NCBI RefSeq assembly: GCF_003269065.1
Contig: NZ_QLTA01000004.1
Coordinates: 1 to 64,000 of the forward strand
Length of the DNA stretch: 64,000 bases
Direction: 5' to 3'
DNA from: Paracidovorax anthurii
Lineage (GTDB): Bacteria; Pseudomonadota; Gammaproteobacteria; Burkholderiales; Burkholderiaceae_C
Shown here: positions 1 through 52,010 of the stretch, piece by piece
Numbering within the stretch: the first letter of the stretch is position 1
Layout: every line of letters begins with the position of its first letter
Translations under genes and position numbers: made by a program
Notes under the pieces: model-generated
Databases searched by the model: none
What the model saw: only the letters and a program-made list of their open reading frames with translations
What the model was told of the DNA's origin: nothing

Positions 1-271
1 AGCCCAGCATGTGGGCTACCAGTGGCCACAGCGGCCCATCGGGATCGAGCTTGGCCGCAGGGCGTGTTGCTCGGCGTCGCGCCACACAGGCCGCTTGTGC
101 CGTCTTCCATGCGTAGCCGCCATCGTGCTGGTTGCGCCGCAATTCACGGCTCAGGCTCGCCGCGCTGCGTCCCAAGCTCCGGCCGATGAATCGCACGCTC
201 CGTCCTTGCTCTTTCAGCGTCTGCAGCATCACCCGCTCTTCAGGCTGCAACTGCTGGAATCTTCTCGTCAT
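1..271 (-). CDS. IS30-family transposase, N-terminal part (runs off the window)
   Basis: Reading the minus strand from ATG at 271 gives about 90 residues that open MTRRFQQLQPEERVMLQ and continue with a helix-turn-helix pattern (EQGRSVRFIGRSLGRSAASL, then SRELRRN). This is the DNA-binding start of IS30-type transposases, which recognise the element ends. The DDE catalytic part would lie beyond position 1, so it cannot be judged whether the enzyme is complete. The frame stays open to the window edge. The family call rests on recognition of the HTH_38-like start. Confidence 0.75.
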   Translation of the reverse strand, partial: MTRRFQQLQPEERVMLQTLKEQGRSVRFIGRSLGRSAASLSRELRRNQHDGGYAWKTAQAACVARRRATRPAAKLDPDGPLWPLVAHMLG

Positions 272-335
272 CTTCACACCCTACCTCATGGGCCAGGTGT
301 TGCATTTCAGATTTGAGACCGCCTTCCATAACCAA
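1..335 (-). mobile_element. Right end of an IS30-type insertion sequence (partial)
   Basis: The partial transposase is followed upstream of its start by about 60 non-coding bases containing TGAAATGCAACACC (minus strand, 294-307), a plausible terminal inverted repeat region for an IS30-type element. The exact end and the target duplication are not determined because the other end lies outside the window. Confidence 0.5.
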
Positions 336-359
336 AGCAATCATAGGTTGATTTTCCCT

Positions 360-947
360 TTATCGGGCCTGCCTTAGCTGCTTTCTCGCTTCCAATCTTG
401 CATACCAGTCCTGCCCTTTCGACCCCGTCCTATCACGAATGCTGGTCTTAAGGTCATGAGTTTTTGCATTAAGGTCTTTTACCTTGGCTTCAAACTGATT
501 TCGCTGGACTTCTATTTCATCCCTATCACCGAACAGCTTTGCCCTCAATTCTTGAAGGCTTGATATTTCAGCCTGAATTTCAGACTTCTCACCAAAATCC
601 CTAGATACCCTTTTCTTAGAAAAGAGTAGATCCAATTGCTCTTTTGTTTTTCTAATAGCTTCGCCTATTTTCCTTTGCGATACTCGTGCATCTTTTAGGA
701 GTGAATATGCTTGGTCAGCAACCTTCATGCACGAAAAATGCATGTCGACGAGCACTTTGAAGTCGTATGAATTTCTGGCATCAGATAAGTGATTCTGAAT
801 CTGATTTTCATGCCACTCAATGCTCCGCTTAACCTCTTCCCGCTTTGACCGCCATCGTTCTCTTTCTGCTCCGGCTTGCTCTTGAAGCTCGTTGTAAATC
901 CATACCCCAGCCCCAATGAGAGCCAATCCCGCTATTATTGGTAGCAT
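360..947 (-). CDS. Hypothetical membrane-anchored coiled-coil protein
   Basis: 195 residues. Residues 1-18 form a short hydrophobic segment (LPIIAGLALIGAGVWIY), followed by a long charged, helix-prone region rich in E, K, R and Q that should form coiled coils (for example SEIQAEISSLQELRAKLF). No catalytic motif is visible and I do not recognise a family. It starts 3 bases after the stop of the upstream coiled-coil gene, so the two form a two-gene operon. The base composition is clearly lower in GC than the chromosome to the right, which suggests acquired DNA. Confidence 0.6.
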   Translation of the reverse strand: MLPIIAGLALIGAGVWIYNELQEQAGAERERWRSKREEVKRSIEWHENQIQNHLSDARNSYDFKVLVDMHFSCMKVADQAYSLLKDARVSQRKIGEAIRKTKEQLDLLFSKKRVSRDFGEKSEIQAEISSLQELRAKLFGDRDEIEVQRNQFEAKVKDLNAKTHDLKTSIRDRTGSKGQDWYARLEARKQLRQAR

Positions 948-950
948 AAA

Positions 951-1538
951 TTATTGGCCGCCGTCGCTAAAGGTCAGTATCAACTCACTGCGAGGCATAG
1001 CCTCAAGAGCCTTCTGAGTGTTCTTCGCTATCAAATCTAATTTGACTATACTTTGCTCTCCAATATTCTTGAGTGACTCCGTGAACATCGCTATTGTTGT
1101 GTGCGAAAGCTGCTTTTCCTCAAGGGAAAGATCTGGATCCGATATATTCTTCACCAAATTATCAATGCAATCCAGAATTCTTTTCTTTTCAAGGTGTGAA
1201 TTTTCCAAATCTCTACTAACAACCTGAAGAGCCATATGCAAAGCCACTCGCCGCTCTTCTAGCAATTGAAGCCCGGCACGTAGGGCGGCATCAATTTGGT
1301 GATGCCTAATTCCCGCTTCAGCCTCAATTCGCTCTTGTTCTGTCTCCAGGATTTTTACCTGGTGCTTGTAATAGACAAGCTGGGCAATTGTTTCAGATGC
1401 GAATTGCAAAGGATTTAGGCTTTTCATGAAGCCCATAAATCCGTTTCTATCAAATTCAAGTGGCTTGCTCTCTTTCACCTCTTGAATTAGCTTTCCGGGA
1501 AGTTTTTCTTGTTTCTGCGGAAGGTTCTTGCTCTTCAT
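951..1538 (-). CDS. Hypothetical coiled-coil protein
   Basis: 195 residues from ATG at 1538. I prefer this start to an earlier in-frame one (1628) because GAGG sits 9 bases upstream and the earlier stretch reads like non-coding sequence. The protein is mostly helical and charged, with Leu/Glu-rich repeats (about residues 60-180) and no signal peptide or membrane segment. No known domain is recognised. It is first in a two-gene operon with the membrane-anchored coiled-coil gene at 360-947, so the pair may form a complex. The function is unknown. It lies between an IS30 fragment and a tRNA gene. Confidence 0.6.
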   Translation of the reverse strand: MKSKNLPQKQEKLPGKLIQEVKESKPLEFDRNGFMGFMKSLNPLQFASETIAQLVYYKHQVKILETEQERIEAEAGIRHHQIDAALRAGLQLLEERRVALHMALQVVSRDLENSHLEKKRILDCIDNLVKNISDPDLSLEEKQLSHTTIAMFTESLKNIGEQSIVKLDLIAKNTQKALEAMPRSELILTFSDGGQ

Positions 1539-1856
1539 GTAAATTATCCTCTGATGGTTGGCTTGACATAAGAAGCGTATCAAAGTCCAGTTTCTGTGTC
1601 TGCTAACTATTCCTCGTTCACTTGCCACCCAACTTGATGAGTAGGGTTCCCACCTCTGCCGTAGGGTCGCCGTTCCTGAGACTCACATGCACCGTGCTTG
1701 TTCGTGGGAGTACGGTAGACTGCCTGTAGCACCTTCTAGGGCAGGGGGTGTAGCACTTTTTCTGTTGTTTTTCGTCCGCTCTGATTGGAAAACTCTTTTA
1801 TAAACAATGGCTTGGCAACAATCTGGATTTACTCCCATCAGCCACCCCAGATCAGC

Positions 1857-1892
1857 AAAGGCGCTGCAACTTCCAAGGTTGCAGCGCCTTTT
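1857..1892. terminator. Intrinsic terminator, probably bidirectional
   Basis: Perfect 11-bp stem GGCGCTGCAAC / GTTGCAGCGCC with a 7-base loop. It is flanked by AAA on the left and TTTT on the right, so it could stop transcription in both directions, mainly on the plus strand. Confidence 0.85.
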
Positions 1893-2127
1893 GTCTTTCA
1901 TGCGTTGAAACAGCCTGGAGCGGGCAAGGTGCGGGGCATCGGCGGTCCCCGAAGGCCTGGCCGGCCCTGAGGCAGGCAAAGCTCCGCATCCTGGCCGCAC
2001 AGACGGAGCGCCCGATGCTTGCCCATTCGCAGGGGAATGCACATGGCGTTCGGGCGCACCCTGCGGGATGCCTGCCATGCAGGACAGGGGCTTACAGCCT
2101 GTACCCGGTATGTCCCACTCCTGACAG

Positions 2128-13872: not shown

Positions 13873-14844
13873 TTACTGGGGATGGGGCTCGATGGCGCGC
13901 CGGGGCCGGTGCGCATGCACGCAAAGCAGCACGCTGGCCACCACGCAGCCCATGGCCAGCAACTCCCAGCGGGTGGGCAGGCGTTGCTCCCACAGGAAGC
14001 CGTACAGCAGCGCGAACAGCGTCTCGAACAGGATCATCTGCCCCACCATGGTCAGGGGCAGCAGCCGGCTCATGCGGTTCCAGAAGGCATTGCCGGCGAT
14101 GGAGGCGGCCAGCGCCACGCCCGTCACCACCGCGGCCAGCCGCCACCACTCCGCCGCGGCATGGGTGGCGCTGTCCGTCAGCAGGGCGAGGGGCAGCAGC
14201 AGCAGCGCCTGGGCGCCGGTGACCACGCCGGTGGCGAGGTTCCAGTCCTGCACGGACACCTGGGGCAGGCGCGCCAGCTGGCGGCTGTTGCCCACGGCAT
14301 AGCAGGTCCACGAGGCCAGCGCGCCGACCGCGCACAGCAGGCCCGCGAGCCCCCCGCCCGGTGCGTCGCCGCCCAGCGACTGCCAGGCAATGCACGCGAT
14401 GCCGACCAGCCCGCACAGCAGCGAAGGCGCGAGCCGGCGCAGCGCGACGGCATGCTGCTCGCGGCTGCCGATCACGGTCACCGCCACCGGCAGGAAGCCG
14501 ATCACCAGCGAGGTCATCGCGATGCCGCCGCGCTGCACGGCGCTGGCCAGCAGCACGTAGTACAGGGTGTTGCCCAGCAGGCTCAGCCGGCACAGCGTCC
14601 ACCAGTCGCGGCGGCCCAGCCGGGACGAAAGCACCCTCCAGCGCGGCACCAGCAGCGCGGCGGCGAACAGGCCATAGGCCAGGAATCGCCCCACCGCCAG
14701 TTGCAGCGGCGTGAAGCCGCGCGCCAGCTCCGGCATGAGGAACACCAGGCCCCAGAGCGCGCCGGCGGCGACGCCGCAGCCGATGCCGACCAGGGTGCGG
14801 CGGTCCGTCGCCGCCGGGGAAACTGCAAGAGGGGTCATGTCCAT
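13873..14844 (-). CDS. DMT-superfamily (EamA) transporter
   Basis: 323 residues with about ten hydrophobic helices in two EamA repeats (GCGVAAGALWGLVFLMPELA in the first, AVGALASWTCYAVGNSRQLA in the second). Members are inner-membrane exporters of amino acids, metabolites or drugs; the substrate cannot be read from the sequence. It lies 48 bases downstream of an AraC-type regulator on the same strand, so the regulator may control it, a common pairing. Confidence 0.85.
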   Translation of the reverse strand: MDMTPLAVSPAATDRRTLVGIGCGVAAGALWGLVFLMPELARGFTPLQLAVGRFLAYGLFAAALLVPRWRVLSSRLGRRDWWTLCRLSLLGNTLYYVLLASAVQRGGIAMTSLVIGFLPVAVTVIGSREQHAVALRRLAPSLLCGLVGIACIAWQSLGGDAPGGGLAGLLCAVGALASWTCYAVGNSRQLARLPQVSVQDWNLATGVVTGAQALLLLPLALLTDSATHAAAEWWRLAAVVTGVALAASIAGNAFWNRMSRLLPLTMVGQMILFETLFALLYGFLWEQRLPTRWELLAMGCVVASVLLCVHAHRPRRAIEPHPQ

Positions 14845-14892
14845 AGTGTTGCCGCGCGGCCCGCCGGGCGTCTCGGCCCGGGCTGCCGTGTT

Positions 14893-15648
14893 TTAGGCCC
14901 GGTCTCTTGCCCGGCGCCGCCAGGCGGCCGGGGTCAGGCCGGTGGTGCGCCGCATCGCGCGGGTCAGCGCGTTCTGGTCGGAATAGCCGGCCGCCAGCGC
15001 CAGCTCGGCGATCGGGCGGTCGGTGGTGGACAGCCATTCGCGCACGCGCTGCAGCCGCAGCTGCGACAGCCAGGCCGCGGGCGTGGTGTCCAGCTCGGCG
15101 CGGAACAGCGCGTGCAGCCGGCTCACGCTCAGGCATGCTTCGCGCGCCATGTCCTCGTTCGTCCAGGGGCGCGCCGGGTCCGCCTGCATCCGCGCCATCA
15201 GCGCCGCCAGCCGCGTCTGCGGCCGGGGCGCCTCGCCGGCCAGCGCATCCAGCATCAGCGGTATCCAGTGCCGGGCCTGCCCGGCCGCGGCCGGGCCCGC
15301 CTGCAGCGTCAACCCCATGTAATCGATCAGCCGCTGCGCGGCCGGCGATACCGCCAGGAAGGGGCGGGCCGCCATGCGCTCGGCGTAGGCGCCGGGCAAC
15401 TCCGTGCCGTCCAGGTCCAGCACCAGCGCGCGGTTGGCACCCTGGCCGGCCTGCGAGTGGCGCATGCCGGGCTCGACGAAGGCCGCGTGCCCTTGCTGCA
15501 GCAGCCCCTCGCGCCCGCCGATGTCCAGCTGCAGCCGCCCCGCCAGCGGCAGCACCAGCTGCGCGAAATCGTGGCGGTGCTCGTCAACCTGCGCGGCATA
15601 GCTGCGCAGGTTCAGGGCGAACGGGGGGCGGGAAGGCGGCATGGGCAA
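14893..15648 (-). CDS. AraC-family transcriptional regulator
   Basis: 251 residues. The N-terminal cupin-like sensing domain (HRHDFAQLVLPLAGRLQLDI, then GMRHSQAG) is followed by a C-terminal double helix-turn-helix of about 100 residues (MAREACLSVSRLHALFRAEL and IAELALAAGYSDQNALTRAM), with the usual late motif TGLTPAAWR. It probably senses a small ligand and controls the DMT transporter gene directly downstream. It also follows the cluster sulfotransferase gene by 69 bases on the same strand, so read-through from the peptide cluster is possible. Confidence 0.88.
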   Translation of the reverse strand: MPMPPSRPPFALNLRSYAAQVDEHRHDFAQLVLPLAGRLQLDIGGREGLLQQGHAAFVEPGMRHSQAGQGANRALVLDLDGTELPGAYAERMAARPFLAVSPAAQRLIDYMGLTLQAGPAAAGQARHWIPLMLDALAGEAPRPQTRLAALMARMQADPARPWTNEDMAREACLSVSRLHALFRAELDTTPAAWLSQLRLQRVREWLSTTDRPIAELALAAGYSDQNALTRAMRRTTGLTPAAWRRRARDRA

Positions 15649-15717: not shown

Positions 15718-16653
15718 TCAGGCCCGTGCGGATGTGCTTCGCAGGTTTTCCGTGTCGCCGCTGACCAGCCAGTGGGCGCAATCGCTCCCCAACTCGGCCA
15801 CGGCACGCCGTTCGTAGCGCTGGCTGGCTTCCGGCGGGAGGGTGCCGCGCCACCGCCCGTTCTGTCCTTGGTGGAAGAAGGCCTTGCCCCCGTCTTTCCA
15901 GAGGCCCGTACCCTGCGGAACATATCTGGCCGCATTTTCCTTCATGTATTGGAAACCGCAGTGCGACAGGATGCTGTCCCGCCGGGATTCTTCGATGGGG
16001 GTGCCGATGAATTCCGCGATTTTCCGGACTTCACCCGGCAAATCGTCGAGAAGGCGCGAGAAGTGGATGAATAGCACGTTGGGCAGATCACGGATGGCCC
16101 ACCATGAACGGATATTTTCCCAGAAGGGCCAGAATGGATGCCCATTCTTTTCCAGCCAGTCATCGAAGTATTCGACGACGGAGGATGACGGGGGCTGAAT
16201 GACCCGCAGGCGACCCGAGGGGTTTCCATCTTTGTCCAGCGTGGCCTGGGCATTCTGGCTGAGCGCCAGTTGGTGGGCGTACAGGCTCCACGCGATGTCG
16301 CGCCCGTCGCGGCCGATGTAGAGATACTTCGCCTGGCCGGAGAACACCAGGGACTCCGCGGGGAGGTGCGTCTTGATGAAGCGCCGGTGGTCCTGGGATT
16401 CGAAAAGCCGGATCTTGGTCGCCTTGTCCGGGTGCACGGAATCGAGCCAGGGCGATATTTTCGAGACGTCGATCTCCTCGGCCCCGTTGAATATCAACTG
16501 GGAGACGATCTGCTGCAAGAGCGTGGTTCCGGCCTTGGCATAACTGGCAATCACGATGTCGCCATCGCGGTATTTGAAATCATTCCAGGCGGTGGAGTCG
16601 AAGAATCGATTCTCATATTCCCGAAGCTTTCGGGGGAGATGGGTGCGGGTCAT
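15718..16653 (-). CDS. PAPS-dependent sulfotransferase (peptide cluster)
   Basis: 311 residues of the classical sulfotransferase fold, which moves sulfate from PAPS to a hydroxyl or amine. The 5'-phosphosulfate loop is AKAGTT (39-44, usually PKSGTT). A candidate catalytic His lies in KTHLP (94-98), the 3'-phosphate motif is GRDGRDIAWS (114-123), and the C-terminal loop is KDGGKAFFHQGQNGRWRG. No signal peptide is seen, so it is cytoplasmic. It has a ribosome binding site (AGGAA) and starts 69 bases after the P450 stop, in the same direction as the precursor peptide and P450. In context the likely acceptor is a Tyr phenol of the modified peptide; that is inference. Confidence 0.85.
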   Translation of the reverse strand: MTRTHLPRKLREYENRFFDSTAWNDFKYRDGDIVIASYAKAGTTLLQQIVSQLIFNGAEEIDVSKISPWLDSVHPDKATKIRLFESQDHRRFIKTHLPAESLVFSGQAKYLYIGRDGRDIAWSLYAHQLALSQNAQATLDKDGNPSGRLRVIQPPSSSVVEYFDDWLEKNGHPFWPFWENIRSWWAIRDLPNVLFIHFSRLLDDLPGEVRKIAEFIGTPIEESRRDSILSHCGFQYMKENAARYVPQGTGLWKDGGKAFFHQGQNGRWRGTLPPEASQRYERRAVAELGSDCAHWLVSGDTENLRSTSARA

Positions 16654-16722
16654 GGGGATTTCCTGCTGGGATGGGAGGGGCGATCGCCGGTCGTTGTGGG
16701 GAGGAGGGCCGAACCTGGGGAG

Positions 16723-18043
16723 TCAAGGCCTGGGGGTGACCCGTATTTGCACGCCCAGGGGGCGCAGGACCAGCGCCGGATAGGGGCGAACCTGCGTTCC
16801 GGGCTCCAGTTCCAGGCGGAAGGAATGGACGATGGCGGCAACGACCATGGTCATCTGGTGCATGGAGAAATGGTCCCCGATGCATTTCCGGGACCCGCTC
16901 CCGAATGGAAGGTAGGCATATCGCGATGACTCCTCCAGGCCGCCGTCCAGCCAGCGGTCCGGCAGGAACTCATCGGGATCGTGGAAGAACCGTGGGTCCC
17001 GGTGGGTCGCCCAGGGGCTGATGGTGAGCGTCGTACCCTTGGGTATGCGGAATCCGCCGAGCCGATCCTCGCGGATCGCAATCCGCCCGGTCATCCATGC
17101 CGGGGGGTACAGCCGCAGGGCCTCCTTCATGACCGCGTTCGCGCAGGCCAGCCGAGAAACGTCGAGGGCCGGGACGGAGAACGTGTCGCCCGCCGCCGCG
17201 CGGACCTCGTCGGCCAGTTTCTGCTGGGTGCCGGCATGGAGCGCAAGCAGGTAGAAAACCCAGGTCAATGCATCGGCCATCGGCTCCAGCCCCGACATGA
17301 TCATGGTGGCCAATTCGTCGCGGAGCCATCCCGACCTTCCGCTGGCGTCGTGTTCCAGCAGGGTGCCCAGAAGGCAGGGCTGGTGGGGGGGCGGCATCGC
17401 GGTATCGCGCAATGATCCGGTCCATGGCCCGGTCCAGGTCGAGGCGTGCGCGGCGCAGGCGAAGGTTGTCGGGCGTGGGAACGAACGACGGGAACCTGAT
17501 CTGGCTGCGCGTCAGGGCCATGATGGCGTCCACCGTTTGCACGACCTGGAGGGCCTCGCCCTCCTCGATCTGCGCTCCGAGCAGAAAAGTGCTGCCGGTC
17601 TTCATGCACAGGCGCTGCATCTCCTGCCGCATGTCGAGGCCAGGAGGCTCCTGGCGCCAGGCGTGGATGAACGAATGCAGCACGGCCGCCGTGCGTCCGA
17701 TGCCGTCGTTGACCGGCGTTTTATGGAAGACCGGCTGCAGCGCGCGCTTCTTGTCTTGCCAGTCCGTGCCCGAACTGTTCATCACCGAGGCGGGAAATGC
17801 CGAATGGTTCTTGTGCCTGTCGCCGGGATCTGTCTTTTCGTAGGTGCCATCCTTGTTGTGGAGCACCTGCCGGATGAGGTCGGGGTGATTGACCAGATAG
17901 GCATCCTTGGACATCCGCACCACGTCGCCATATTCCCGCGAGCATTTCAGCAGGAATTTCAGCGGGTCCTCGGTGAACTCCACGATGTTGCCAATGAAGG
18001 GCTGGCCTTTGGGCCCTGGCGGAATATTCTTGTCGTTCTCCAT
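16723..18043 (-). pseudogene. Cytochrome P450, frame interrupted at a poly-C run
   Basis: The minus strand encodes a whole P450 in two frames. The first part (18043 to about 17390) has the IPPGPKG proline-rich start and the C-helix WQDKKRALQPVF. The second (to 16723) has the I-helix, ExxR (EALR in KEALRLYPP) and the heme loop FGSGSRKCIG with the ligand Cys codon at 16882-16884. The frames meet at seven Gs (17385-17391; Cs in the coding sense). Removing one C joins them into a 439-residue protein of normal length. The I-helix reads SGLEPMAD, lacking the usual Thr. It follows the 26-residue precursor gene, so its likely job is Tyr crosslinking. ATG 18043 is preferred; GTG 18115 also fits. It may be inactive, phase-variable or a sequencing slip. 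Confidence 0.85.
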
Positions 18044-18149
18044 GGGGCCATGGTCCCGCCGCGTTGTCGGGAGCGGAGATTTCTCGGAATCTTCAAGGAG
18101 GTTGCGGAGTGCCACGCAAGGGAATTGCGAAGAACTGGTAATGGTGTGC

Positions 18150-18175
18150 CCCAGGGGAAGTAATCTTCCCCTGGG
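18150..18175 (-). other. Hairpin between precursor and P450 genes
   Basis: Perfect 11-bp stem CCCAGGGGAAG / CTTCCCCTGGG with loop TAAT, ending 10 bases after the precursor stop codon. No T run follows on the minus strand, so it is more likely a processing or attenuation hairpin that raises precursor mRNA over enzyme mRNA than a full terminator. Confidence 0.6.
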
Positions 18176-18185
18176 TGGGCGAATA

Positions 18186-18266
18186 TCAGTAGGTGTAGAT
18201 ATAGCCCATCTTGTTGCCGCGCAGGACGCGGGCCAGCTTGGCCAGCGTATAGATCATGGTCTTCAT
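18186..18266 (-). CDS. RiPP precursor peptide, cittilin-like (26 residues)
   Basis: 26 residues from ATG at 18266, with GAGGGA 6 bases upstream, a strong ribosome binding site. The N-terminal leader (about MKTMIYTLAKLARVLRGNKM) is basic and helix-prone. The last six residues are GYIYTY, ending on Tyr26 at the stop. In known cittilin biosynthesis (Myxococcus) a very short precursor ends in YIYY, and a P450 and a methyltransferase make a crosslinked, methylated peptide. Here P450, methyltransferase and two sulfotransferase genes surround the gene. The likely core is YIYTY, with Tyr22, Tyr24 and Tyr26 as crosslink or sulfation sites. It heads the minus-strand operon. The precursor role is inferred from size, C-terminus, initiation signal and context. 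Confidence 0.85.
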   Translation of the reverse strand: MKTMIYTLAKLARVLRGNKMGYIYTY

Positions 18267-18494
18267 ATTGAGTCCCTCGTGTGATTGAAATATGCGGATA
18301 TGGCGCCAATGACGACGCCGCCGCGAGGCTACCACGGAGGTCGGTGGATTCAAGGTGTGGAGCTTTCCCCGCGGGCATGGGGTGATCAATAAGAATTTCT
18401 TGCTGATATAAATGAAAATTATCTGAACACACTGCGGGTTTGCATATTATTTTCCCCTCTCAATCGGACCATGAATGTCAAAGAGGGTTGAATC
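18267..18494. promoter_or_regulatory. Divergent promoter region of the peptide cluster
   Basis: 228 bases separate the precursor start (minus) from the methyltransferase start (plus). Positions 18381-18450 are strikingly AT-rich for this chromosome. TATTAT at 18445-18450 is a possible -10 for the plus-strand genes. No firm -35 or repressor operator is recognised. Confidence 0.5.
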
Positions 18495-19262
18495 TTGCAG
18501 ATTTCTCAAAAGGCCGGATACGATTCATTCGCGGATTTCTACGATGCCTGGCACGACCGGGCCCCCCAGAAAACCAAGGCCGATTGCGTGGAGATGCTCG
18601 CGGAGATCGCCGGGGACGGCCCCGCCCTGGAATTGGCGATCGGCACCGGCAGGATCGCGTTGCCCTTGGCCATGAAAGGCGTGCGGGTCTCCGGGGTCGA
18701 TAACTCCCCTGGCATGCTCGAAAAGCTCCATGCAAAGCCCGGCGCCGACCAATTGACCACGACGGTGTGCGGGAATTTCGCGGATGTTCCCCTGGAGGGC
18801 CCCTTTGGCCTCATCTACGCGGTGTTCTCGTTCGGCTATCTGCTGACGCAGGCGGAGCAGGTGCGCTGTTTCATGAATGTGAAAAAGCGGCTGGCGCGCG
18901 GCGGGGCATTCGTGATCCAGACGGCCGTGCCCGGCGCCCGGATCTTCAGCGGATCGAGCAACGTGGACAACATCTTCGATGTGCCCTCCATGGAGGAGAG
19001 CGCGGGCCAGGACGCCACCGTGCTCCAGTGCTCGAAAGCGGATCTGGTCCAGCAGATCATCGACCAGCGGATGATCGTCCTGGGCGACGGGATGCCGAAG
19101 ATCCACACCGATCGATGGAGGTACGTGTGGCCTTCGGAGCTGGACTTGATGGCACAGATCGCCGGGCTGACACTGCATGCCCGCTGGGGGGGATGGACGC
19201 GGGAGCCATTCACGTCGAAGAGCCCGACCCAGGTGTCCGTCTACCAGCGCCTGGACGCCTGA
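18495..19262 (+). CDS. SAM-dependent methyltransferase, class I (peptide cluster)
   Basis: 255 residues. A Rossmann methyltransferase core is clear: motif I ELAIGTGR (46-53), the acidic residue binding SAM ribose in GVDNSP (Asp69), motif IV region FGLIYAVFSFGYLL, and post-motif VKKRLARGGAFVIQ. No membrane part is seen. The start is TTG at 18495, preceded by GAGGG at 6 bases. It is divergent from the precursor/P450 operon and 5 bases before the second sulfotransferase gene. In cittilin clusters a methyltransferase acts on the peptide, so an O-methyl (Tyr) or C-terminal methylation is plausible here; the site is not readable. Confidence 0.85.
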   Translation: MQISQKAGYDSFADFYDAWHDRAPQKTKADCVEMLAEIAGDGPALELAIGTGRIALPLAMKGVRVSGVDNSPGMLEKLHAKPGADQLTTTVCGNFADVPLEGPFGLIYAVFSFGYLLTQAEQVRCFMNVKKRLARGGAFVIQTAVPGARIFSGSSNVDNIFDVPSMEESAGQDATVLQCSKADLVQQIIDQRMIVLGDGMPKIHTDRWRYVWPSELDLMAQIAGLTLHARWGGWTREPFTSKSPTQVSVYQRLDA

Positions 19263-19267
19263 GCGGC

Positions 19268-19948
19268 ATGACCCTGGAAATCATCGGCGCCGGCCTGGGA
19301 CGCACCGGCACGCTGTCGCTGAAGCTGGCGCTGGAGCATCTGGGCTTCGGCCCCTGCTACCACGCCATGGAGGTCGCGGCCACCGCGAGGCGGTCCGTTC
19401 CGCTGTGGAATGGTGCGATACGCGGCACGCCCGATTGGGACGCTCTTTTCGACGGCTATGCGGCCACCGTCGATTACCCGGGCTGCTGCTTCTGGCGCGA
19501 ATTGCTGGACCACTGTCCGCAGGCCCGGGTGATCCTGTCGGTGCGCGATCCGGACGACTGGTTCGATTCGGTGAGCGAGACGATCTTTTCCCAGGTGCGC
19601 GGCAATCCGCTGCTGGGCGAGCAGGGGGCGGAAATCAGCAGGTTCCTGAGGCGCGATTTCGGAGACCGCATCGGTGACCGTGCATTCATGACCCGCTATT
19701 TCGAGCGCTGGAACCAGGCGGTGATCGAGGCCGTCCCGGCGGGGCGCCTGCTGGTCTTCTCGGCGGGAGAGGGGTGGGAGCCCCTGTGCCGCTTTCTCGG
19801 GGTGCCGGTGCCCGGCGTGCCCTATCCCCGCGAGCACGCGCGCGGCGCAGCGAGCGGCGGCGACCGCCGCGTGCCATCGGACCCGGCCGAACTGGAAGTG
19901 CGCATGCGCGGCTATCTCGATCGGCTGAGCCACAGCGCCTTCGGTTGA
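19268..19948 (+). CDS. Sulfotransferase-family protein (Sulfotransfer_4 type)
   Basis: 226 residues. The N-terminus IIGAGLGRTGTLSLKLALE with LGFGPCYHAMEV, and the second loop SVRDPDDWFDS (91-101), are the signature of the Sulfotransfer_4 family, distantly related to PAPS sulfotransferases; GRTGTLS (11-17) is the phosphate loop. The fold is shared with the sulfotransferase at 15718, but the sequence is clearly of another family, so this is not a recent duplicate. The gene starts 5 bases after the methyltransferase stop without its own strong ribosome binding site, suggesting translational coupling. Its role in the cluster is unknown; a second sulfation or a different acceptor are both possible. 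Confidence 0.82.
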   Translation: MTLEIIGAGLGRTGTLSLKLALEHLGFGPCYHAMEVAATARRSVPLWNGAIRGTPDWDALFDGYAATVDYPGCCFWRELLDHCPQARVILSVRDPDDWFDSVSETIFSQVRGNPLLGEQGAEISRFLRRDFGDRIGDRAFMTRYFERWNQAVIEAVPAGRLLVFSAGEGWEPLCRFLGVPVPGVPYPREHARGAASGGDRRVPSDPAELEVRMRGYLDRLSHSAFG

Positions 19949-22495: not shown

Positions 22496-23063
22496 AGCGC
22501 ATGAATGAATGGGTGAGCGGCGCATGCGGAAGGGCGGGGCGCAAGGTGGCTGGATTCCGCCACGGTCCGAGGCCGTCATCGTGGCTCTTGGCTTGATCGG
22601 GTCATGGCGGCTTACTTCGGGGTTGCAGCGCAGCGTGGTTTTGTCGGGGGCTTCTGTTCGTCACCTCGGAATCTGCCATGAGGTGTATGCAGTTAGGACG
22701 GCTTTACGCCTCGCTGCAGTCGCTCAAGATGCCAGTGGCTACAACGGCTTTGCAGCGTTTGCTGACGATGGATGTAGCTAAGCGCACTGACGCTGCATGC
22801 TAGAAAACGGCTGTTTGGTTCGGAGCCCGGGGCTGGCTGTCAACGACGGCTGTCCGGTGTACTGCGGGTCACAGGGCTTCCGCGACTCAAAGTGTGTACG
22901 CCATCGACCGCGCTCCCATCGCCTGTACTGGCGGTTTCGACCCAGAGCAGTTGTTCACAATACCCCGGTGAACGCCTGCAGTGCGCTAGGAGAGGACACT
23001 CGCCGGAGCCTCGTTTGCAATAAATGGGCTGTCAGTTTAACCAGTTTTATATAGGAGGAAGAT
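22496..23063. other. Intergenic stretch, no gene recognised
   Basis: 568 bases where the composition drops from chromosome-like GC to AT-rich near 23040. Short frames (for example 22680-22805 on plus) have no ribosome binding site and no recognised product. It probably contains the left junction of an acquired segment. Confidence 0.4.
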
Positions 23064-23618
23064 TTGAAAAGAATTAAAAGAGAGTACGGATTGGAGCTTG
23101 ATCCATTTGCTTGTTATAAAATGGAATTTCTCCATAATAAATCAAAAGAAAATTTTGAGTCGACTGAGAAATGGCTTTATCTTGGCGCCAATGATAGAGA
23201 TCGTGCATTTGCCAAGGTAGGTATAACCATGGGAAATCTAACGACACGCTCATCCAGCTCGGAGAGCCCAGGTTATTATCTGTTTTGTGCTTTTAAGTGC
23301 GTAAACAATATAACCAAAAATCAGCTGGAATCTATAGAGGAAGATGCTTTAAGCCATCTTGAAGGAGTATTTCGGCACTCTGATGGTTCGATTAAGCGAG
23401 CTTTGCATTATGAATCGGAGTACATCTCAGAATGTTTTTTTGAAGTTGATTTTCTGGATTTTTTTCGCGCACTCCATTACCACCTGTACAAGAATCATCG
23501 CAATGATTTCATGCCTTGTGGGTTTGAAAATGATGAGGGTGAATTCTTGGATTGCGAATTTAATCCGCGCATCTCACGCGATGAAATCAATAGATACATA
23601 AGAATGATTCTCCAATAG
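23064..23618 (+). CDS. Orphan low-GC protein, possibly GIY-YIG/T5orf172-like
   Basis: 184 residues starting at TTG 23064, with GGAGG at 5 bases' spacing, a very good ribosome binding site. The segment KWLYLGANDRDRAFAKVGIT followed by NLTTRSSSSESPGYYLF recalls the start of GIY-YIG-like T5orf172 domains (Tyr-Leu-Gly, then Lys-Val-Gly-Ile-Thr and an Arg), which occur in phage and mobile-element nucleases. The similarity is short and unproven. The gene is AT-rich, unlike everything around it, and is followed by an IS5 remnant, so it was probably acquired. No partner gene is seen. Confidence 0.6.
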   Translation: MKRIKREYGLELDPFACYKMEFLHNKSKENFESTEKWLYLGANDRDRAFAKVGITMGNLTTRSSSSESPGYYLFCAFKCVNNITKNQLESIEEDALSHLEGVFRHSDGSIKRALHYESEYISECFFEVDFLDFFRALHYHLYKNHRNDFMPCGFENDEGEFLDCEFNPRISRDEINRYIRMILQ

Positions 23619-23680
23619 TGCCATTAGAGCGTGTTATGAAACTTGCTCCGTGAGAGCGAGGCCGTGGGTAGAGTTTGCGA

Positions 23681-24100
23681 ATGTCACGCAAGCCCCACCC
23701 GATGGACTTCAGCGATAAAGAATGGAGCTTCGCTGCGCCCTACCTGAGACCCTGATGGACCAGCATGCTCCACAGCGCGAGCACGATCTGCGCGAATTCT
23801 TTTCAACGCCCTGCGCTGGCTGGTGTGCGCGGGGAGCGCCCAGGCGGACGTTGCCCAACGATCGGCCGCCTTGGGAGGCGGTCTCACCAGCAGAGCCGCC
23901 GCTGGCTGGATGCAGGCTACTTCGAAGCGATGGTCTCGGATCTGCGCTCCATCATTCACGTGACACAAGGTCGCCAGGCCCAGCCTAACGCCGCAGTGAT
24001 GGATGGGCGTACTCGCGAGGGCTGCCCGCGTGCCGGCTACGACGGCTACAAGCGCGGCATCCTTAGCGGCGCGCTTGCCAGAGGTTGATGAGCGACCGCT
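23681..24100 (+). pseudogene. IS5-family transposase remnant
   Basis: The frame opens MSRKPHPMDFSDKEWSFAA and stops after 24 residues. IS5-like pieces then continue in other frames: REHDLREFF, then LDAGYFEAMVSDLRSIIHVT, QAQPNAAVMDGRTREG and PRAGYDGYKRG. Together they are the first half of an IS5-type DDE transposase, broken by a stop and frameshifts and cut off before the C-terminal catalytic residues. It is dead. Confidence 0.8.
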
Positions 24101-39922: not shown

Positions 39923-40050
39923 GGTGGATTGGAAGGACCGCCAGCCCCGCAGGGACATCCTGGGGCGGGCTCGGGCGGCCATGGGTTCTTGTCGTGTTCC
40001 GGAGGCGCGCGGAACGCCTTCAGGCATTCGGGGGAGGGCGCGCGACTCGA

Positions 40051-40061
40051 TATGCTAGAAT
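40051..40061 (+). promoter_or_regulatory. Extended -10 promoter of the rpsB operon (candidate)
   Basis: TGCTAGAAT within 40053-40061 is a good extended -10 (TG-n-TAGAAT). It would start a leader of about 140 bases before rpsB. S2 operons often have autoregulatory leaders, but I do not see a defined S2-binding fold here. Confidence 0.5.
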
Positions 40062-40206
40062 CTCGGGGTTTTGCTGGTTATGGGCGCCTCGTGGGCGCAA
40101 ATTCTGGCGAAATCAATCGCAAACCGGCCTTTTCAAGGTGCTGCCTCCAAAAAATGCGGGGCGGTTAGCGGGGCCGGATTTTAGACCCAACCTTCGGAGA
40201 ATTCTC

Positions 40207-40959
40207 ATGTCCGTCACCATGCGCGAAATGCTGGAAGCCGGTGTCCACTTCGGTCACCAAACCCGCTTCTGGAACCCCAAGATGGCCCCCTACATCTTCG
40301 GCCATCGCAACAAGATCCACATCATCAACCTGGAAAAGTCGCTGCCGCTGTTCCAGGAGGCGCAGAAGTTCGCCAAGCAGCTCACCGCCAACCGCGGCAC
40401 CATCCTGATGGTCGGCACCAAGCGCCAGGCCCGCGAGATCCTGGCCACCGAGGCGCAGCGCGCCGGCGTGCCCTACGTCGACCAGCGCTGGCTGGGCGGC
40501 ATGCTCACCAACTTCAAGACCGTCAAGACCTCCATCAAGCGCCTCAAGGACATGAAGGCCCAGCAGGAAGCCGGCCTCGAATCCATGAGCAAGAAGGAAC
40601 AGCTCACCTTCACCCGCGAGATCGAGAAGCTCGAAAAGGACATCGGCGGCATCCAGGACATGACGGCCCTGCCTGACGCCATCTTCATCATCGACGTCGG
40701 CTTCCACAAGATCGCCGTCGCCGAAGCCAAGAAGCTGGGCATCCCGCTGATCGGCGTGGTGGACTCCAACCATTCGCCCGAAGGCATCGACTACGTGATC
40801 CCCGGCAACGACGACTCGGCCAAGGCCGTGGCGCTGTATGCCCGCGGCATCGCCGACGCGATCCTCGAAGGCCGCGCCAATGCCGTGAACGAGGTGGTCA
40901 AGGCTGTTGCCACCGAAGGCTCGGACGAATTCGTGGAAGTGGAAGAAACCGCTGCCTGA
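40207..40959 (+). CDS. rpsB: 30S ribosomal protein S2
   Basis: 250 residues, normal length. Classic opening [19 protein letters not shown], followed by [10 protein letters not shown], and later [10 protein letters not shown] and [12 protein letters not shown]2 sits on the small-subunit body and is needed for late assembly. A GGAGA ribosome binding site precedes ATG 40207. It heads the rpsB-tsf block, and a terminator (40994-41021) partly separates tsf. Confidence 0.98.
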
Positions 40960-40993
40960 TGGCCCGGCCGCGCGACCTGTCGCGAATGAAAGA

Positions 40994-41021
40994 GGGGCTC
41001 CTGGTTAGCCCCCTTTTTTTT
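40994..41021 (+). terminator. Intrinsic terminator/attenuator between rpsB and tsf
   Basis: Stem GGGGCT / AGCCCC with a 7-base loop, followed by eight Ts. It probably reduces, without abolishing, expression of tsf and the genes after it. Confidence 0.85.
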
Positions 41022-41067
41022 AGCCTTGAATCTTGTAACGAACTGAACTGAGACTGGAGAACTACCG

Positions 41068-41991
41068 ATGGCTGCTATTACCGCAAGCATGGTCGCCGAA
41101 CTGCGCGCCAAGACCGATGCCCCCATGATGGAATGCAAGAAGGCCCTGACCGAGGCCGAGGGCGATCTGGCCAAGGCGGAAGAGCTGCTGCGCGTCAAGC
41201 TGGGTACCAAGGCTGGCAAGGCGGCCGCGCGCATCACCGCCGAAGGCGTGGTGGCGAGCTTCATCGACGGCACCACGGGTGGCCTGATCGAAGTCAACAG
41301 CGAAACCGATTTCGTCAGCAAGAACGACAGTTTCATCGCCCTGGCCAAGGCCGCGGCCGAGCTGGTCGCCAAGCACAACCCCGCCAATGTGGAAGCCCTG
41401 GGCGCGTTGTCCTATAGCCAGGACGGCTTCGGTCCCACGCTGGAAGACGTGCGCAAGGGCCTGATCGGCAAGATCGGCGAGAACATGACCTTCCGCCGCT
41501 TCAAGCATTTCGGCGGCGCTGGCAAGCTGGCCTCGTACCTGCACGGCACGCGCATCGGCGTGGTGGTGGAATTCGACGGCGACGAAACCGCCGCCAAGGA
41601 CGTGGCGATGCACATCGCCGCCATGAAGCCCGTGGCCCTGACCAGCGCCGAAGTGCCCGCCGACCTGATCGAGAAGGAACGCTCGGTCGCCGCCGCCAAG
41701 GCCGCCGAAGACAAGGCCAAGGCCGAGGCCGAAGGCAAGCCGGTGCAGTCCGACGAGATCGTTGCCAAGCGCATCGAAGGCGGCGTGCAGAAGTACCTGA
41801 AGGAAGTGTCCCTGTTCAACCAGGCCTTCGTGAAGAATGACAAGCAGACCGTCGAGCAGATGCTCAAGGCTGCCGGCACCACGGTGAAGGGCTTCACGCT
41901 GTACGTCGTGGGCGAAGGCATCGAGAAGAAGGTGGACGACTTCGCTGCCGAAGTGGCTGCCCAGGTGGCTGCCGCCAAGGCCGCAGCCTGA
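41068..41991 (+). CDS. tsf: Elongation factor Ts
   Basis: 307 residues. It has the UBA-like N-terminus ([19 protein letters not shown]), the TDFVSKND motif (80-87) that contacts EF-Tu, and the C-terminal segments [20 protein letters not shown] and [17 protein letters not shown]. It recharges EF-Tu by exchanging GDP for GTP. GGAGA lies before ATG 41068. Confidence 0.98.
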
Positions 41992-42041
41992 TCCTCCGCG
42001 CCATCACCGCCCCCACAACCATTCCTTCCGGAGAAATGCCC

Positions 42042-42764
42042 ATGACCCTCGCCGCTCCAGCCCACAAGCGCATCCTGCTCAAGTTGTCTGGAGAAGCTCT
42101 CATGGGCGATGACGCCTTCGGCATCAACCGGACCACCATCGTGCGCATGGTGGAGGAGATCGCCGAGGTGACGCGCCTGGGGGTGCAGGTCGCGGTGGTG
42201 ATCGGCGGGGGCAACATCTTCCGCGGCGTGGCGGGCGGCTCCGTCGGAATGGACCGCGCCACGGCCGATTACATGGGCATGCTCGCCACGGTGATGAACG
42301 CCCTGGCGCTGGCCGATGCCATGGACAAGCAGGGCCTCATCGCCCGCGTCATGTCCGCGATCGGCATCGAGCAGGTGGTCGAGCCCTATGTCCGGCCCAA
42401 GGCGCTGCAGTACCTCGAAGAGGGCAAGGTGGTGGTTTTCGCGGCCGGCACCGGCAATCCCTTCTTCACGACGGATACCGCCGCGGCCCTGAGAGGCGCA
42501 GAGATCGGCGCCGAGGTCGTGCTCAAGGCCACCAAGGTGGATGGCGTGTATACCGCCGATCCCAAGAAGGACCCCACGGCGACGCGCTATGCCCAGCTCA
42601 CGTTCGACGAGGCCATGGCACGCAATCTGGGCATCCTGGATGCCACGGCCTTCGCGCTCTGCCGCGACCAGAAGCTGCCCATCCGCGTCTTCTCCATCGT
42701 GAAGCACGGCGCCCTCAAGCGCGTGGTGATGGGCGAGGACGAGGGCACGCTGGTGTACGCTTGA
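42042..42764 (+). CDS. pyrH: UMP kinase
   Basis: 240 residues. It has the amino-acid-kinase start [14 protein letters not shown], the nucleotide loop [10 protein letters not shown], and later [14 protein letters not shown] and [12 protein letters not shown]. It makes UDP from UMP. ATG 42042 is preferred to 42036 because the CGGAG ribosome binding site is 8 bases away, against 2. It lies between tsf and frr, the usual order. Confidence 0.97.
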
Positions 42765-42833
42765 AGGCTGGCTGACTGCGGCCATGGGTTGAACCATGGA
42801 TCGACAATCCAGCGGGCCTGCACAGGAGAACAC

Positions 42834-43394
42834 ATGACCATTGCCGACATCAAGAAAAATACCGAAACCAAGATGGATCAGTCCATCGTGGCCTTCAAGA
42901 ACAACCTCTCCAAGATCCGCACGGGGCGTGCCAATCCGGCACTGCTGGATGCCGTGCAGGTCGAGTATTACGGCTCCATGGTGCCTTTGTCGCAGGTGGC
43001 CAACGTGTCGCTGCTCGACGCGCGCACCATCAGCGTGCAGCCCTGGGAAAAGGGCATGGGCGCGAAGATCGAGAAGGCCATCCGCGAAAGCGATCTGGGT
43101 TTGAACCCCGCCTCCATGGGCGACCTCATCCGGGTTCCGATGCCTCCGATGAGCGAAGAGCGCCGCAAGGAAATGACCAAGCTGGCGCGCAACGAGAGCG
43201 AAGGCGCGAAGGTCGCCGTGCGCAACCTGCGCCGCGATGCCAACGAAGCCGTCAAGAAGCTTGTCAAGGACAAGCTGGCCTCGGAGGATGAGCAAAAGCG
43301 CGCAGAGGCCGATATCCAGAAGGTGACCGACAAGCACATCGCCGAGGTGGACACGCTCGTGGCCGCCAAGGAACAGGAAATCATGGCGGTCTGA
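42834..43394 (+). CDS. frr: Ribosome recycling factor
   Basis: 186 residues, the normal length. It has the triple-helix bundle start [20 protein letters not shown], then [18 protein letters not shown], and the helix [15 protein letters not shown]-like end. With EF-G it splits ribosomes after termination. AGGAG precedes ATG 42834. It is followed by uppS after 28 bases. Confidence 0.98.
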
Positions 43395-43422
43395 TCGTCC
43401 CCGTCACGCACGGGCTCGATCG

Positions 43423-44169
43423 ATGCTTTCCATGTCCACCCCCTTCTCCGTTCCGCACCATATCGCCATCGTCATGGATGGCAATGGACGCTGGGCCACG
43501 CGCCGGTTCCTGCCGCGCCTTGCGGGGCACAAGCAGGGCGTGGACGCGCTGCGGCGTTGCGCGCGCGACTGCGTGGAACGTGGCGTGGCCGTGCTGACGG
43601 TGTTCGCTTTCTCCTCCGAGAATTGGAACCGTCCCGCCGAAGAAGTGTCGGGCCTGATGGATCTGCTGGCCAAGGCGTTGGCGCGCGAAGTTCCGCAATT
43701 GCAGAAGGACGGTGTCCGCCTGCATTTCGTGGGCGAGAAGACCACGCTCTCGGACAAGGTCCGGGCGGGCCTGCTCCAGGCGGAGGAGGCCACGGCGCGA
43801 AACAGCCGGCTGGTGCTCAACGTGTGTTTCAACTATGGTGGCCGGTGGGATATCGCACAGGCCGCCGCCACCCTCGCTGCGCGCGGAGAGGTGATCACCG
43901 AGGCCAGTTTGCACACTGCCATGGGGCTGGCCCATGTTCCGGATCCGGATCTCGTGATCCGTACCGGGGGTGAGATGCGCATCAGCAATTTCCTGCTCTG
44001 GCAATGCGCCTATTCAGAGCTCTACTTCAGCGACCGACTCTGGCCTGATTTCGATGCGAAGGCCCTGGACGAGGCCATTGCCGCCTATGGAGCGCGGGAG
44101 CGCCGTTTCGGCAAGACCTCCGAGCAGTTGCTGCCGAAGGCGGCATCCATCTCACCGTTGCGTGCCTGA
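43423..44169 (+). CDS. uppS: Isoprenyl transferase (undecaprenyl diphosphate synthase)
   Basis: 248 residues. It has the cis-prenyltransferase signature IVMDGNGRWATRR with catalytic Asp, then FSSENWNRP, and the C-terminal RTGGEMRISNFLLWQ. It makes the C55 lipid carrier for cell-wall and O-antigen synthesis. ATG 43432 is an alternative start. cdsA follows after 13 bases. Confidence 0.97.
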   Translation: MLSMSTPFSVPHHIAIVMDGNGRWATRRFLPRLAGHKQGVDALRRCARDCVERGVAVLTVFAFSSENWNRPAEEVSGLMDLLAKALAREVPQLQKDGVRLHFVGEKTTLSDKVRAGLLQAEEATARNSRLVLNVCFNYGGRWDIAQAAATLAARGEVITEASLHTAMGLAHVPDPDLVIRTGGEMRISNFLLWQCAYSELYFSDRLWPDFDAKALDEAIAAYGARERRFGKTSEQLLPKAASISPLRA

Positions 44170-44182
44170 AGGGGCTTCTTCC

Positions 44183-46212: not shown

Positions 46213-46246
46213 CCCGCGCGCCATCTCCTCAGCACAGGAGTGCCTC

Positions 46247-47614: not shown

Positions 47615-47657
47615 CCTTTCGCCGCATGGATCCGCCATGTCGGCATCAGCTTCACTC

Positions 47658-50482: not shown

Positions 50483-50524
50483 TCGCGGCTGCCGCAGCAC
50501 CATGGTTCGCGCGGGGCGCATCTC

Positions 50525-51526: not shown

Positions 51527-51963
51527 TGGACATCCACCAAATCCTCAAGCTTTTGCCGCACCGCTACCCCTTCCTGCTGGTGGACCGAGTGGTCGAGCTC
51601 GAGAGAGGCCAACGCATCCAGGCGATCAAGAACGTCACCATCAACGAGCCCTTCTTCACGGGGCATTTCCCGAACCGTCCGGTGATGCCGGGCGTGCTGA
51701 TGCTGGAAGCGCTCGCGCAGGCCGCCGGCCTGCTGTCCTTTGACATGATGGGCGAGGCGCCCGGCGACGACAAGGTCTTCTATTTCGTCGGCATCGACGG
51801 CGCGCGCTTCAAGCGCCCCGTGGAGCCGGGCGACCAGCTCATCCTCGATGTGCGCCTCGATCGCACCAAAGGCGGCATCTACAAGTTCACCGGAGTCGCG
51901 CGCGTGGGCGACAACGTGGCTTGCGAGGCCGAGATCATGTGCACCATGCGCACGGTGGGCTGA
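51523..51963 (+). CDS. fabZ: 3-hydroxyacyl-ACP dehydratase FabZ
   Basis: 146 residues. It has the hot-dog fold with [14 protein letters not shown] and the catalytic segment [20 protein letters not shown] (His and Glu). It dehydrates 3-hydroxyacyl-ACPs for fatty acids and competes with LpxA/LpxD for substrate. The start overlaps the lpxD stop. Confidence 0.97.
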
Positions 51964-52010
51964 GTGCCGGGGATTTCGCAGCGGAACCGGCCAGGGCAGG
52001 GCGGCAAGCG

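What the first reader, a model, noticed from the sequence alone, without database searches (positions are those of the whole stretch)
15718..19948. Candidate cittilin-like crosslinked-peptide cluster with two sulfotransferases
A 26-residue gene ending in GYIYTY, a P450, a SAM methyltransferase and two unrelated sulfotransferases lie together with no other biosynthetic genes. Cittilins (Myxococcus) are made from a tiny precursor ending YIYY by a P450 and a methyltransferase. Here the core is apparently YIYTY (Tyr-x-Tyr-x-Tyr), and sulfation enzymes are added. I know of no described sulfated member of this class. The cluster has lower GC than its neighbours, suggesting acquisition.
Basis: partly seen in the sequence, partly recalled or inferred. 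Interest (0 to 1): 0.93.

Follow-up and report, generated by a model that had tools for sequence, protein, structure and literature searches.

The report
Bacterial sulfated peptide resembling plant hormone
Some plant-associated bacteria carry a small gene cluster that looks set to make a short, chemically modified peptide whose sequence is almost the same as the plant growth hormone phytosulfokine, and the same cluster occurs in two distantly related bacterial groups.

Summary
The cluster is real: ST1 (15718-16653 -), a P450 (16723-18043 -), a 26-aa precursor ending YIYTY (18186-18266 -), a methyltransferase (18495-19262 +) and ST2 (19268-19948 +). Correction: the window's P450 is frame-broken near 17375-17400; intact copies exist in relatives.

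The genus is Paracidovorax. P. valerianellae has all five genes intact, precursor ending YIYTY. Agrobacterium vitis/Allorhizobium ampelinum plasmids carry orthologues of all four enzymes (P450 42%, MT 50%, ST1 56%, ST2 65%); behind an unrelated leader their precursor also ends YIYTY. A third Paracidovorax has only precursor and P450 at the locus, no ST1/ST2 relative in its genome, and core HRYIY.

Position 5 tolerates change, and phytosulfokine signalling can lower immunity to bacteria. Best reading: a P450-modified, sulfated RiPP, possibly a phytosulfokine mimic (about even odds). No chemical, receptor or plant evidence exists here; kinship to cittilin's P450 could not be tested.

The parts
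18186..18266 (-). Precursor peptide gene, 26 aa, MKTMIYTLAKLARVLRGNKMGYIYTY
   Evidence: conserved at 77% and 54% identity in two other Paracidovorax genomes; an unrelated leader (3 of 20 residues identical) with the same core in A. vitis
18189..18203 (-). Core YIYTY codons (TAT ATC TAC ACC TAC); the same residues with synonymous codon differences in P. valerianellae and A. vitis
17375..18043 (-). Cytochrome P450, N-terminal part (frame broken at its 3' end)
   Evidence: Pfam p450 1e-15; 64% to P. valerianellae P450 residues 4-224; pN 0.21, pS 0.66
16723..17400 (-). Cytochrome P450, C-terminal part with I-helix (SGLEPM) and heme-binding motif (FGSGSRKCIG), in another frame
   Evidence: Pfam p450 2.3e-51; 61% to P. 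valerianellae P450 residues 221-438; residues; pN 0.27, pS 0.70
15718..16653 (-). ST1, SULT-type sulfotransferase (PF00685)
   Evidence: 1.1e-45; nearest solved sequences SULT1B1, estrogen sulfotransferase, retinol dehydratase, tyrosine-ester sulfotransferase; 71% to P. valerianellae, 56% to A. vitis
18495..19262 (+). SAM methyltransferase (TTG start)
   Evidence: PF13649 1e-11; best NCBIfam model is the daptide RiPP methyltransferase, 66 bits, under its cut-off of 175; 64% and 50-51% to orthologues
19268..19948 (+). ST2, sulfotransferase of PF17784
   Evidence: 2.4e-58; 70% to P. valerianellae, 65% to A. vitis
18267..18494 (.). Divergent intergenic (promoter) region between precursor-P450-ST1 and MT-ST2; no PIP-box-like pattern found
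13873..15648 (-). EamA transporter (13873-14844) and AraC-type regulator (14893-15648) between the cluster and the conserved DUF1631 neighbour; no homologue in the 18 kb around the P. valerianellae cluster or in the 18 kb around the G002 locus; role unknown

Best explanation
A dedicated RiPP pathway. Shown by sequence: a 25-26 aa precursor, a P450, a methyltransferase and two unrelated sulfotransferases travel together in two distant groups of plant-associated bacteria, with the C-terminal core YIYTY unchanged. Inferred: the P450 binds the leader and cross-links tyrosines in the Tyr-x-Tyr-x-Tyr core; the two sulfotransferases O-sulfate two of the three tyrosines (Tyr1 and Tyr3 by analogy with phytosulfokine); the methyltransferase caps the third phenol or another position; an unlinked protease frees the core. 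Inferred function: the product imitates phytosulfokine (sY-I-sY-T-Q), engages host PSK receptors, and so dampens immunity to the bacterium and/or promotes host cell growth.
For: (1) Conserved set: window, P. valerianellae, A. vitis/All. ampelinum plasmids; pairwise identities. (2) The core YIYTY is the same in the window, P. valerianellae and five of five fetched A. vitis/All. ampelinum loci, while the two leaders share 3 of 20 residues and the P450s are about 42% identical; codons differ synonymously. (3) Natural contrast: the carrier without ST1, ST2 and MT in 18 kb around the locus, and without ST1 or ST2 relatives at E <= 1e-5 in its genome, has HRYIY instead. (4) Plant PSKs are disulfated YIYTQ, YVYTQ, YIYTN and YVYTN (PMC10796568 and PMC11756074 passages); PSK is described as the only known plant hormone with two sulfotyrosines (PMC9372746 passages); sY1 and sY3 are called indispensable while position 5 tolerates change (PMC11994915 passages). 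(5) PSK signalling attenuates immunity to Pseudomonas syringae, and PSK/PSKR genes promote callus (PMC10796568 passages). (6) ST1 is nearest to SULT1-type phenol sulfotransferases among solved structures. (7) In all five intact P450s aligned the I-helix reads SGLEPM in place of AGxDTT, i.e. without the usual oxygen-activating Thr (the motif and its role are recalled).
Against: No chemistry, expression, receptor or plant data. Cross-linking could stiffen the peptide and spoil PSK receptor binding. The core has Tyr at position 5 where plant PSKs have Gln or Asn. Neither sulfotransferase is TPST-like, and the Asp that plant TPST needs before PSK is absent (Gly or Arg here). PSK signalling also raises resistance to necrotrophic fungi, and rice OsPSKR1 is listed as regulating immunity to bacterial leaf streak, direction not seen. 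No exporter or protease was recognised in the cluster. Only two independent lineages with YIYTY are known. The window's own P450 is frame-broken. ST1 homologues also occur apart from the other genes, in 4 of 297 Rhizobiaceae genomes and one Sulfitobacter plasmid. Profile kinship of the P450 to ApyO is weak, and one unrelated control P450 comes as near.
Confidence: 0.5

Rival explanations
1. A P450-cross-linked, sulfated RiPP (cittilin/cyptide-like in logic) whose target is not the PSK receptor: for example a protease inhibitor, metal binder or competition factor, with sulfate added for solubility or export. (The confidences given for the rivals are not exclusive of each other.)
For: All biosynthetic evidence fits equally well. 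Known P450 RiPPs use Tyr-x-Tyr cores; ApyO joins YLY (PMC13192836 passages), and cittilins have a 27-aa precursor, a P450 and a methyltransferase (PMC8708641 passages). The HRYIY carrier without sulfotransferases shows the precursor-P450 pair exists without the PSK-like core.
Against: Does not explain why Ile and Thr are kept between the tyrosines while the leader changes almost completely, why HRYIY goes with absence of both sulfotransferases, or why both known carrier groups are plant-associated.
Confidence: 0.35
2. The sulfotransferases act on small molecules (for example plant phenolics) and merely sit next to a small P450 peptide cluster.
For: ST1 homologues occur apart from the other genes in 4 of 297 Rhizobiaceae genomes and in Sulfitobacter indolifex.
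Against: All four enzymes and the precursor stay together in two distant lineages in different gene orders; ST1 and ST2 of the cluster are the only members at E <= 1e-5 in the window and P. valerianellae genomes.
Confidence: 0.08
3. The P450 hydroxylates rather than cross-links, so the product is a linear sulfated YIYTY derivative.
For: The two best profile families are terpene oxygenases (pentalenene oxygenase 206 bits, albaflavenone monooxygenase 196 bits; ApyO third with 188). A linear disulfated YIYTY would be the closest PSK analogue.
Against: The I-helix Thr is missing in all five intact copies aligned. Aromatic residues are kept at core positions 1, 3 and 5 (Y/Y/Y or H/Y/Y). ApyO lies 8-24 bits below the top model in the three cluster P450s tested, against 19-79 bits in five control P450s; the nearest control, at 19, overlaps the range.
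Confidence: 0.15
4. In the window strain the cluster is decaying and makes nothing.
For: P450 frame break.
Against: Both P450 pieces, ST1, ST2 and MT show pN well below pS against P. valerianellae (pS is near saturation), and the break lies in a homopolymer, where sequencing errors are common. It concerns one strain only.
Confidence: 0.3

Closest known systems
Phytosulfokine (plant PSK, precursor + TPST + subtilases)
   Same: YIYT core in the C-terminal part of a precursor; two tyrosines and two sulfotransferases; plant context
   Different: Last residue Tyr, not Gln/Asn; bacterial 25-26 aa precursor; SULT-like enzymes, not TPST; no Asp before the core; P450 and methyltransferase added
RaxX/RaxST (Xanthomonas sulfopeptide mimic of plant PSY)
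   Same: Would be a bacterial sulfopeptide imitating a plant hormone
   Different: RaxX is a 60-residue precursor sulfated by a TPST-type enzyme, from raxX-raxSTAB (PMC6637879 abstract start in the listing; PMC9372746 passages); here a minimal RiPP, two other sulfotransferase families, a P450, a different hormone and no recognised exporter
Cittilins (Myxococcus, CitA/CitB/methyltransferase)
   Same: Precursor under 30 aa with Tyr-rich C-terminus, one P450, one methyltransferase
   Different: Core YIYTY instead of YIYY; two sulfotransferases; P450 kinship untested
Aminopyruvatide (ApyA/ApyO, Burkholderia thailandensis)
   Same: P450 matching the same broad profile clan, acting on a C-terminal Tyr-x-Tyr
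   Different: ApyO model score 188 against cut-off 525; ApyA is 66 aa; none of the cluster genes is an MNIO by Pfam
Bacterial 'PSK homologue' reported from genome mining (one Proteobacteria sp., YIYTQ)
   Same: PSK-like sequence attributed to a bacterium
   Different: Per PMC8618561 passages it has an N-terminal signal domain and a C-terminal PSK domain, from a phyllosphere metagenome; function not studied; no modifying cluster is mentioned in the passages seen

Membership tests
P450-modified minimal RiPP (cyptide-type, broad) | Short precursor with aromatic C-terminal core beside a P450, conserved across genomes | tested here: met
   3 of 17 Paracidovorax genomes carry this P450, each with the precursor beside it; 5 of 5 fetched A. 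vitis/All. ampelinum plasmid loci
P450-modified minimal RiPP (cyptide-type, broad) | Aryl cross-link in the product | not testable with these tools
   Needs MS and NMR; expected masses
Cittilins | Precursor about 27 aa with Tyr-rich tetrapeptide end, P450 and methyltransferase only | tested here: inconclusive
   26/25-aa precursors, P450 and MT present, but the core is YIYTY and two sulfotransferases are added
Cittilins | P450 orthologous to CitB | not tested
   No CitB sequence was reachable in the collections used
Biarylitides | Five-residue precursor (MxYxH type) | tested here: not met
   Precursor is 25-26 aa ending YIYTY; definition from PMC8708641 passages
Aminopyruvatides | ApyO-family P450 above curated cut-off, with MNIO | tested here: not met
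   188, 164 and 134 bits against cut-off 525; none of the cluster genes is an MNIO by Pfam
Plant phytosulfokine | Core Y-[I/V]-Y-T-[Q/N] | tested here: not met
   Four of five positions match; position 5 is Tyr
Plant phytosulfokine | Both Tyr sulfated and recognised by PSKR | not testable with these tools
   Needs biochemistry
RaxX-RaxST type sulfopeptides | TPST-type sulfotransferase | tested here: not met
   PF00685 and PF17784; nearest solved sequences are SULT1-type (ST1) and a 'sulfotransferase family protein' (9kf1) and SgdX2 (ST2)

The most novel reading that the evidence does not exclude
Two unrelated groups of plant-associated bacteria share a dedicated RiPP pathway that makes a doubly sulfated, P450-tailored phytosulfokine mimic: a built-in hormone analogue made with enzymes unlike the plant's, used to lower immunity and drive host cell growth. 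In the window strain, if its P450 is truly lost, the product could be a linear sulfated YIYTY, even closer to the hormone.
Probability: 0.48. Interest if true: 0.96.

Novelty: new variant of a known kind. Interest (0 to 1): 0.9.

Why it matters
If true, bacteria imitate a second class of sulfated plant hormone, after the PSY mimic RaxX, by a different chemistry, and a member of the P450-RiPP kind, for which one paper says the biological function of cittilins and biarylitides remains unknown (PMC8708641 passages), would have a concrete target. It gives a testable link between PSK signalling and two groups of plant-associated bacteria. It would also provide two SULT-like candidate peptide tyrosine sulfotransferases. 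Even without hormone mimicry, I saw no sulfated P450-RiPP pathway in the listings of the searches made.

Tried and rejected
Precursor profile across Comamonadaceae: 399 genomes, 54 with a match at E <= 0.5, only the window's own strong (4e-17); the rest are at 0.013 or worse and cover only part of the profile, taken as chance and not followed up one by one. P450 profile at E <= 1e-60: only the own genome among 398 of the phylum; own plus three 29-32%-identical P450s among 394 of the family, without a small ORF ending in the aromatic patterns scanned within about 1-1.5 kb. The P450 in the G010 genome (32%) is likewise a different one. ST2 profile in 398 phylum genomes: 13 with a match at E <= 1e-40, the 12 besides the own at 210 bits or less against 453 for the own; their neighbourhoods were not examined. 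ST2 of A. vitis against plasmids: 18 records, 6 of them A. vitis/All. ampelinum and 12 under 60% (best Nonomuraea 44.8%, not looked at); Mesorhizobium ciceri has an ST2 relative with no P450 annotated nearby. ST1 profile in 297 Rhizobiaceae genomes: 4 with ST1, none of the other cluster genes within the 8.8-14 kb fetched, two of these stretches near a contig end. Sulfitobacter: ST1 present, P450 only 27%, and one out-of-frame ORF ending WRY inside the P450, taken as chance. Herpetosiphon P450 (34%): neighbourhood listed only. Viral contigs: none. PIP box: none found. PhyH of A. vitis: no homologue in the window or in 18 kb around the two other Paracidovorax loci. Not followed up: whether G002 has a relative of the cluster methyltransferase outside the 18 kb fetched.


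Full report
Observation. At 15718-19948 the window holds ST1 (PF00685, 15718-16653 -), a P450, a 26-codon gene (18186-18266 -), a SAM methyltransferase (18495-19262 +, TTG start) and ST2 (PF17784, 19268-19948 +). The precursor-P450-ST1 and MT-ST2 arms diverge from an intergenic region. Both parts have pN well below pS against the intact P. valerianellae gene (0.21 and 0.27 against 0.66 and 0.70, with pS near saturation), so the break is either recent or a sequencing artefact; intact copies exist in relatives. A DNA pattern for YIYTY-stop occurs once in the window, with 0.00 expected from shuffles.

Relatives in the genus. The window lies in G000. Of 60 genomes searched with the 26-aa peptide (the window's own included), 3 matched at E <= 1: the own, G003 (77% identity) and G002 (54%). 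G003 is Paracidovorax valerianellae DSM 16619 by its contig. Of 17 genomes of the genus, 4 have a P450 hit; one of these, G010, at 32%, is a different P450, leaving 3. G003 has the whole set intact in the same divergent layout. G002 has only MKTVYHSLAKLAHALRGNRIGHRYIY (GTG start) and an intact P450; no MT, ST1 or ST2 in 18 kb around it, and no ST1 or ST2 relative in its genome at E <= 1e-5. The window and G002 clusters lie in the same place, between a DUF1631 gene and a conserved 435-aa protein. That protein has no Pfam hit at 0.01; calling it TAXI-like is from recall. All 17 genomes have it. I fetched the stretch beside it from the 15 other genomes; in 13 the DUF1631 gene follows with no cluster gene detected between them, and in 2 (G004; G014, where the contig ends) the DUF1631 neighbour was not found in the stretch. 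Gaps computed run from overlaps of up to 202 bases to 0.88 kb, 0.7-0.9 kb in three genomes; the value for L113 (-1344) is an artefact of frame-walking. G003 carries the cluster elsewhere and its own site is empty (L114). GC is low in the window (62.8 against 72-74%) and in G003 (54.2 against 67-69%) but not in G002 (70.3 against 70.4-70.7%).

Relatives far away. tblastn of the P. valerianellae P450 against plasmid records gave 543 records, 30 listed; the best six, at 39-41% identity, are A. vitis/Allorhizobium ampelinum, and the next listed are at 34% or less. Five of these six were fetched (L043-L046, L049; CP056044, which gives the same coordinates and scores as CP056049, was not). All five have P450-MT-ST2-ST1 in one direction, and all five have, some 110 bases upstream of the P450, MKKFLAVFIGASKLNRRKPRYIYTY, with a GGAG Shine-Dalgarno stretch in the one looked at (L044). 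Identities across the two lineages: P450 41-42%, MT 50-51%, ST1 56%, ST2 65%. The leaders share 3 of 20 residues without gaps, the last five residues are identical, and codons differ synonymously.

What it does. ST1 profiles to SULT1B1, estrogen and tyrosine-ester sulfotransferases among solved structures; ST2 to a 'sulfotransferase family protein' (9kf1), SgdX2 and the schistosome oxamniquine sulfotransferases (organism of the last from recall). The P450 is below every NCBIfam cut-off: pentalenene oxygenase 206, albaflavenone monooxygenase 196, ApyO 188 bits for P. valerianellae; 121, 142 and 134 for A. vitis; 170, 188 and 164 for G002. ApyO lies 8-24 bits under the best model in these three, against 19-79 in five control P450s (19, 55, 65, 68, 79). 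The nearest control overlaps, so this is a hint, not membership. The I-helix reads SGLEPM in all five intact sequences aligned, lacking the Thr that monooxygenases usually have (role recalled). The methyltransferase's best NCBIfam model is the daptide RiPP methyltransferase, 66 bits against a cut-off of 175. With aromatic residues at core positions 1, 3 and 5 in all three Paracidovorax precursors (Y/Y/Y, Y/Y/Y, H/Y/Y), tyrosine cross-linking is the likeliest P450 job. ApyO joins the two tyrosines of YLY and accepts some other middle residues (PMC13192836 passages).

The hormone match. Plant phytosulfokines are disulfated YIYTQ, YVYTQ, YIYTN and YVYTN (PMC10796568 and PMC11756074 passages). YIYTY agrees in four of five positions, differing only where PSK tolerates change: alanine and lysine at position 5 promoted root growth more than the wild type, while both sulfotyrosines were called indispensable from free-energy calculations (PMC11994915 passages). 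PSK is described as the only known plant hormone with two sulfotyrosines (PMC9372746 passages). PSK signalling attenuates Arabidopsis immunity to Pseudomonas syringae, helps oomycetes and root-knot nematodes, and PSK/PSKR genes promote callus (PMC10796568 passages), which would suit a biotrophic leaf pathogen and a crown-gall bacterium. The same passages say it raises resistance to necrotrophic fungi and list rice OsPSKR1 as regulating immunity to bacterial leaf streak without, in what I saw, the direction. Where both sulfotransferases are present (window, P. valerianellae, A. vitis group) the core is YIYTY; where they are absent (G002) it is HRYIY.

Spread. At strict cut-offs the P450 profile rang only in the own genome among 398 phylum genomes, and in the own plus three distant P450s among 394 Comamonadaceae. 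These are samples, and A. vitis itself was not shown to be among the sampled genomes. ST1 without the other genes nearby occurs in 4 of 297 Rhizobiaceae genomes and one Sulfitobacter plasmid. In what was sampled the system is rare; both known carrier groups are plant-associated (A. vitis from record fields; Paracidovorax as plant pathogens from recall). VAR03-1, one of the carriers, is recalled to be a non-tumour-forming strain, so the cluster need not mean disease.

Literature. In the listings of searches I saw no paper on a sulfated P450-RiPP or on this cluster. YIYTY occurs in one docking paper of an unrelated subject (listing only). PMC8618561 (passages) tells of PSK homologues mined from fungi and one bacterium of a phyllosphere metagenome, of unstudied function. 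RaxX is the known bacterial sulfopeptide hormone mimic (PMC9372746 passages; PMC6637879 abstract start in the listing). The library lacks most subscription papers; the primary cittilin paper did not come up and was not read.

Verdict. Shown by sequence: conserved precursor, P450, methyltransferase and two sulfotransferases, with the same YIYTY in two distant lineages. Inferred: cross-link, sulfation sites, methylation site. Hypothesis: phytosulfokine mimicry, about even odds.

Noticed in passing
window 17375-17400: P450 reading frame broken in a C-rich run; intact in P. valerianellae and G002. Sequencing error or real loss cannot be told.
   Followed up: partly
L043 11895-12809 (and L044-L046, L049): A phytanoyl-CoA dioxygenase (PhyH) gene sits convergently beside ST1 on all five fetched A. 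vitis/All. ampelinum plasmids; no homologue in the window or in 18 kb around the two other Paracidovorax loci. Possibly a further tailoring enzyme.
   Followed up: partly
L067 6968-7882 and L072-L075: ST1 homologues (50-54%) without the other cluster genes nearby in Sulfitobacter indolifex and four Rhizobiaceae genomes: a sulfotransferase with perhaps another job. One of them (G867) has an in-frame TGA.
   Followed up: partly
window 23001-24000: Low-GC island (47.5%) with a 184-aa ORF (23064-23618) that has no Pfam match at 0.01.
   Followed up: partly
window 1-2000 and 40001-52000: Stretches of lower GC (48-50% and 62-68%) than most of the window; content not examined.
   Followed up: no
L101, L102, L105 (G010, G013, G011): The DUF1631 insertion site has 0.7-0.9 kb between the two neighbours in three genomes; not analysed beyond the absence of cluster genes.
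   Followed up: no
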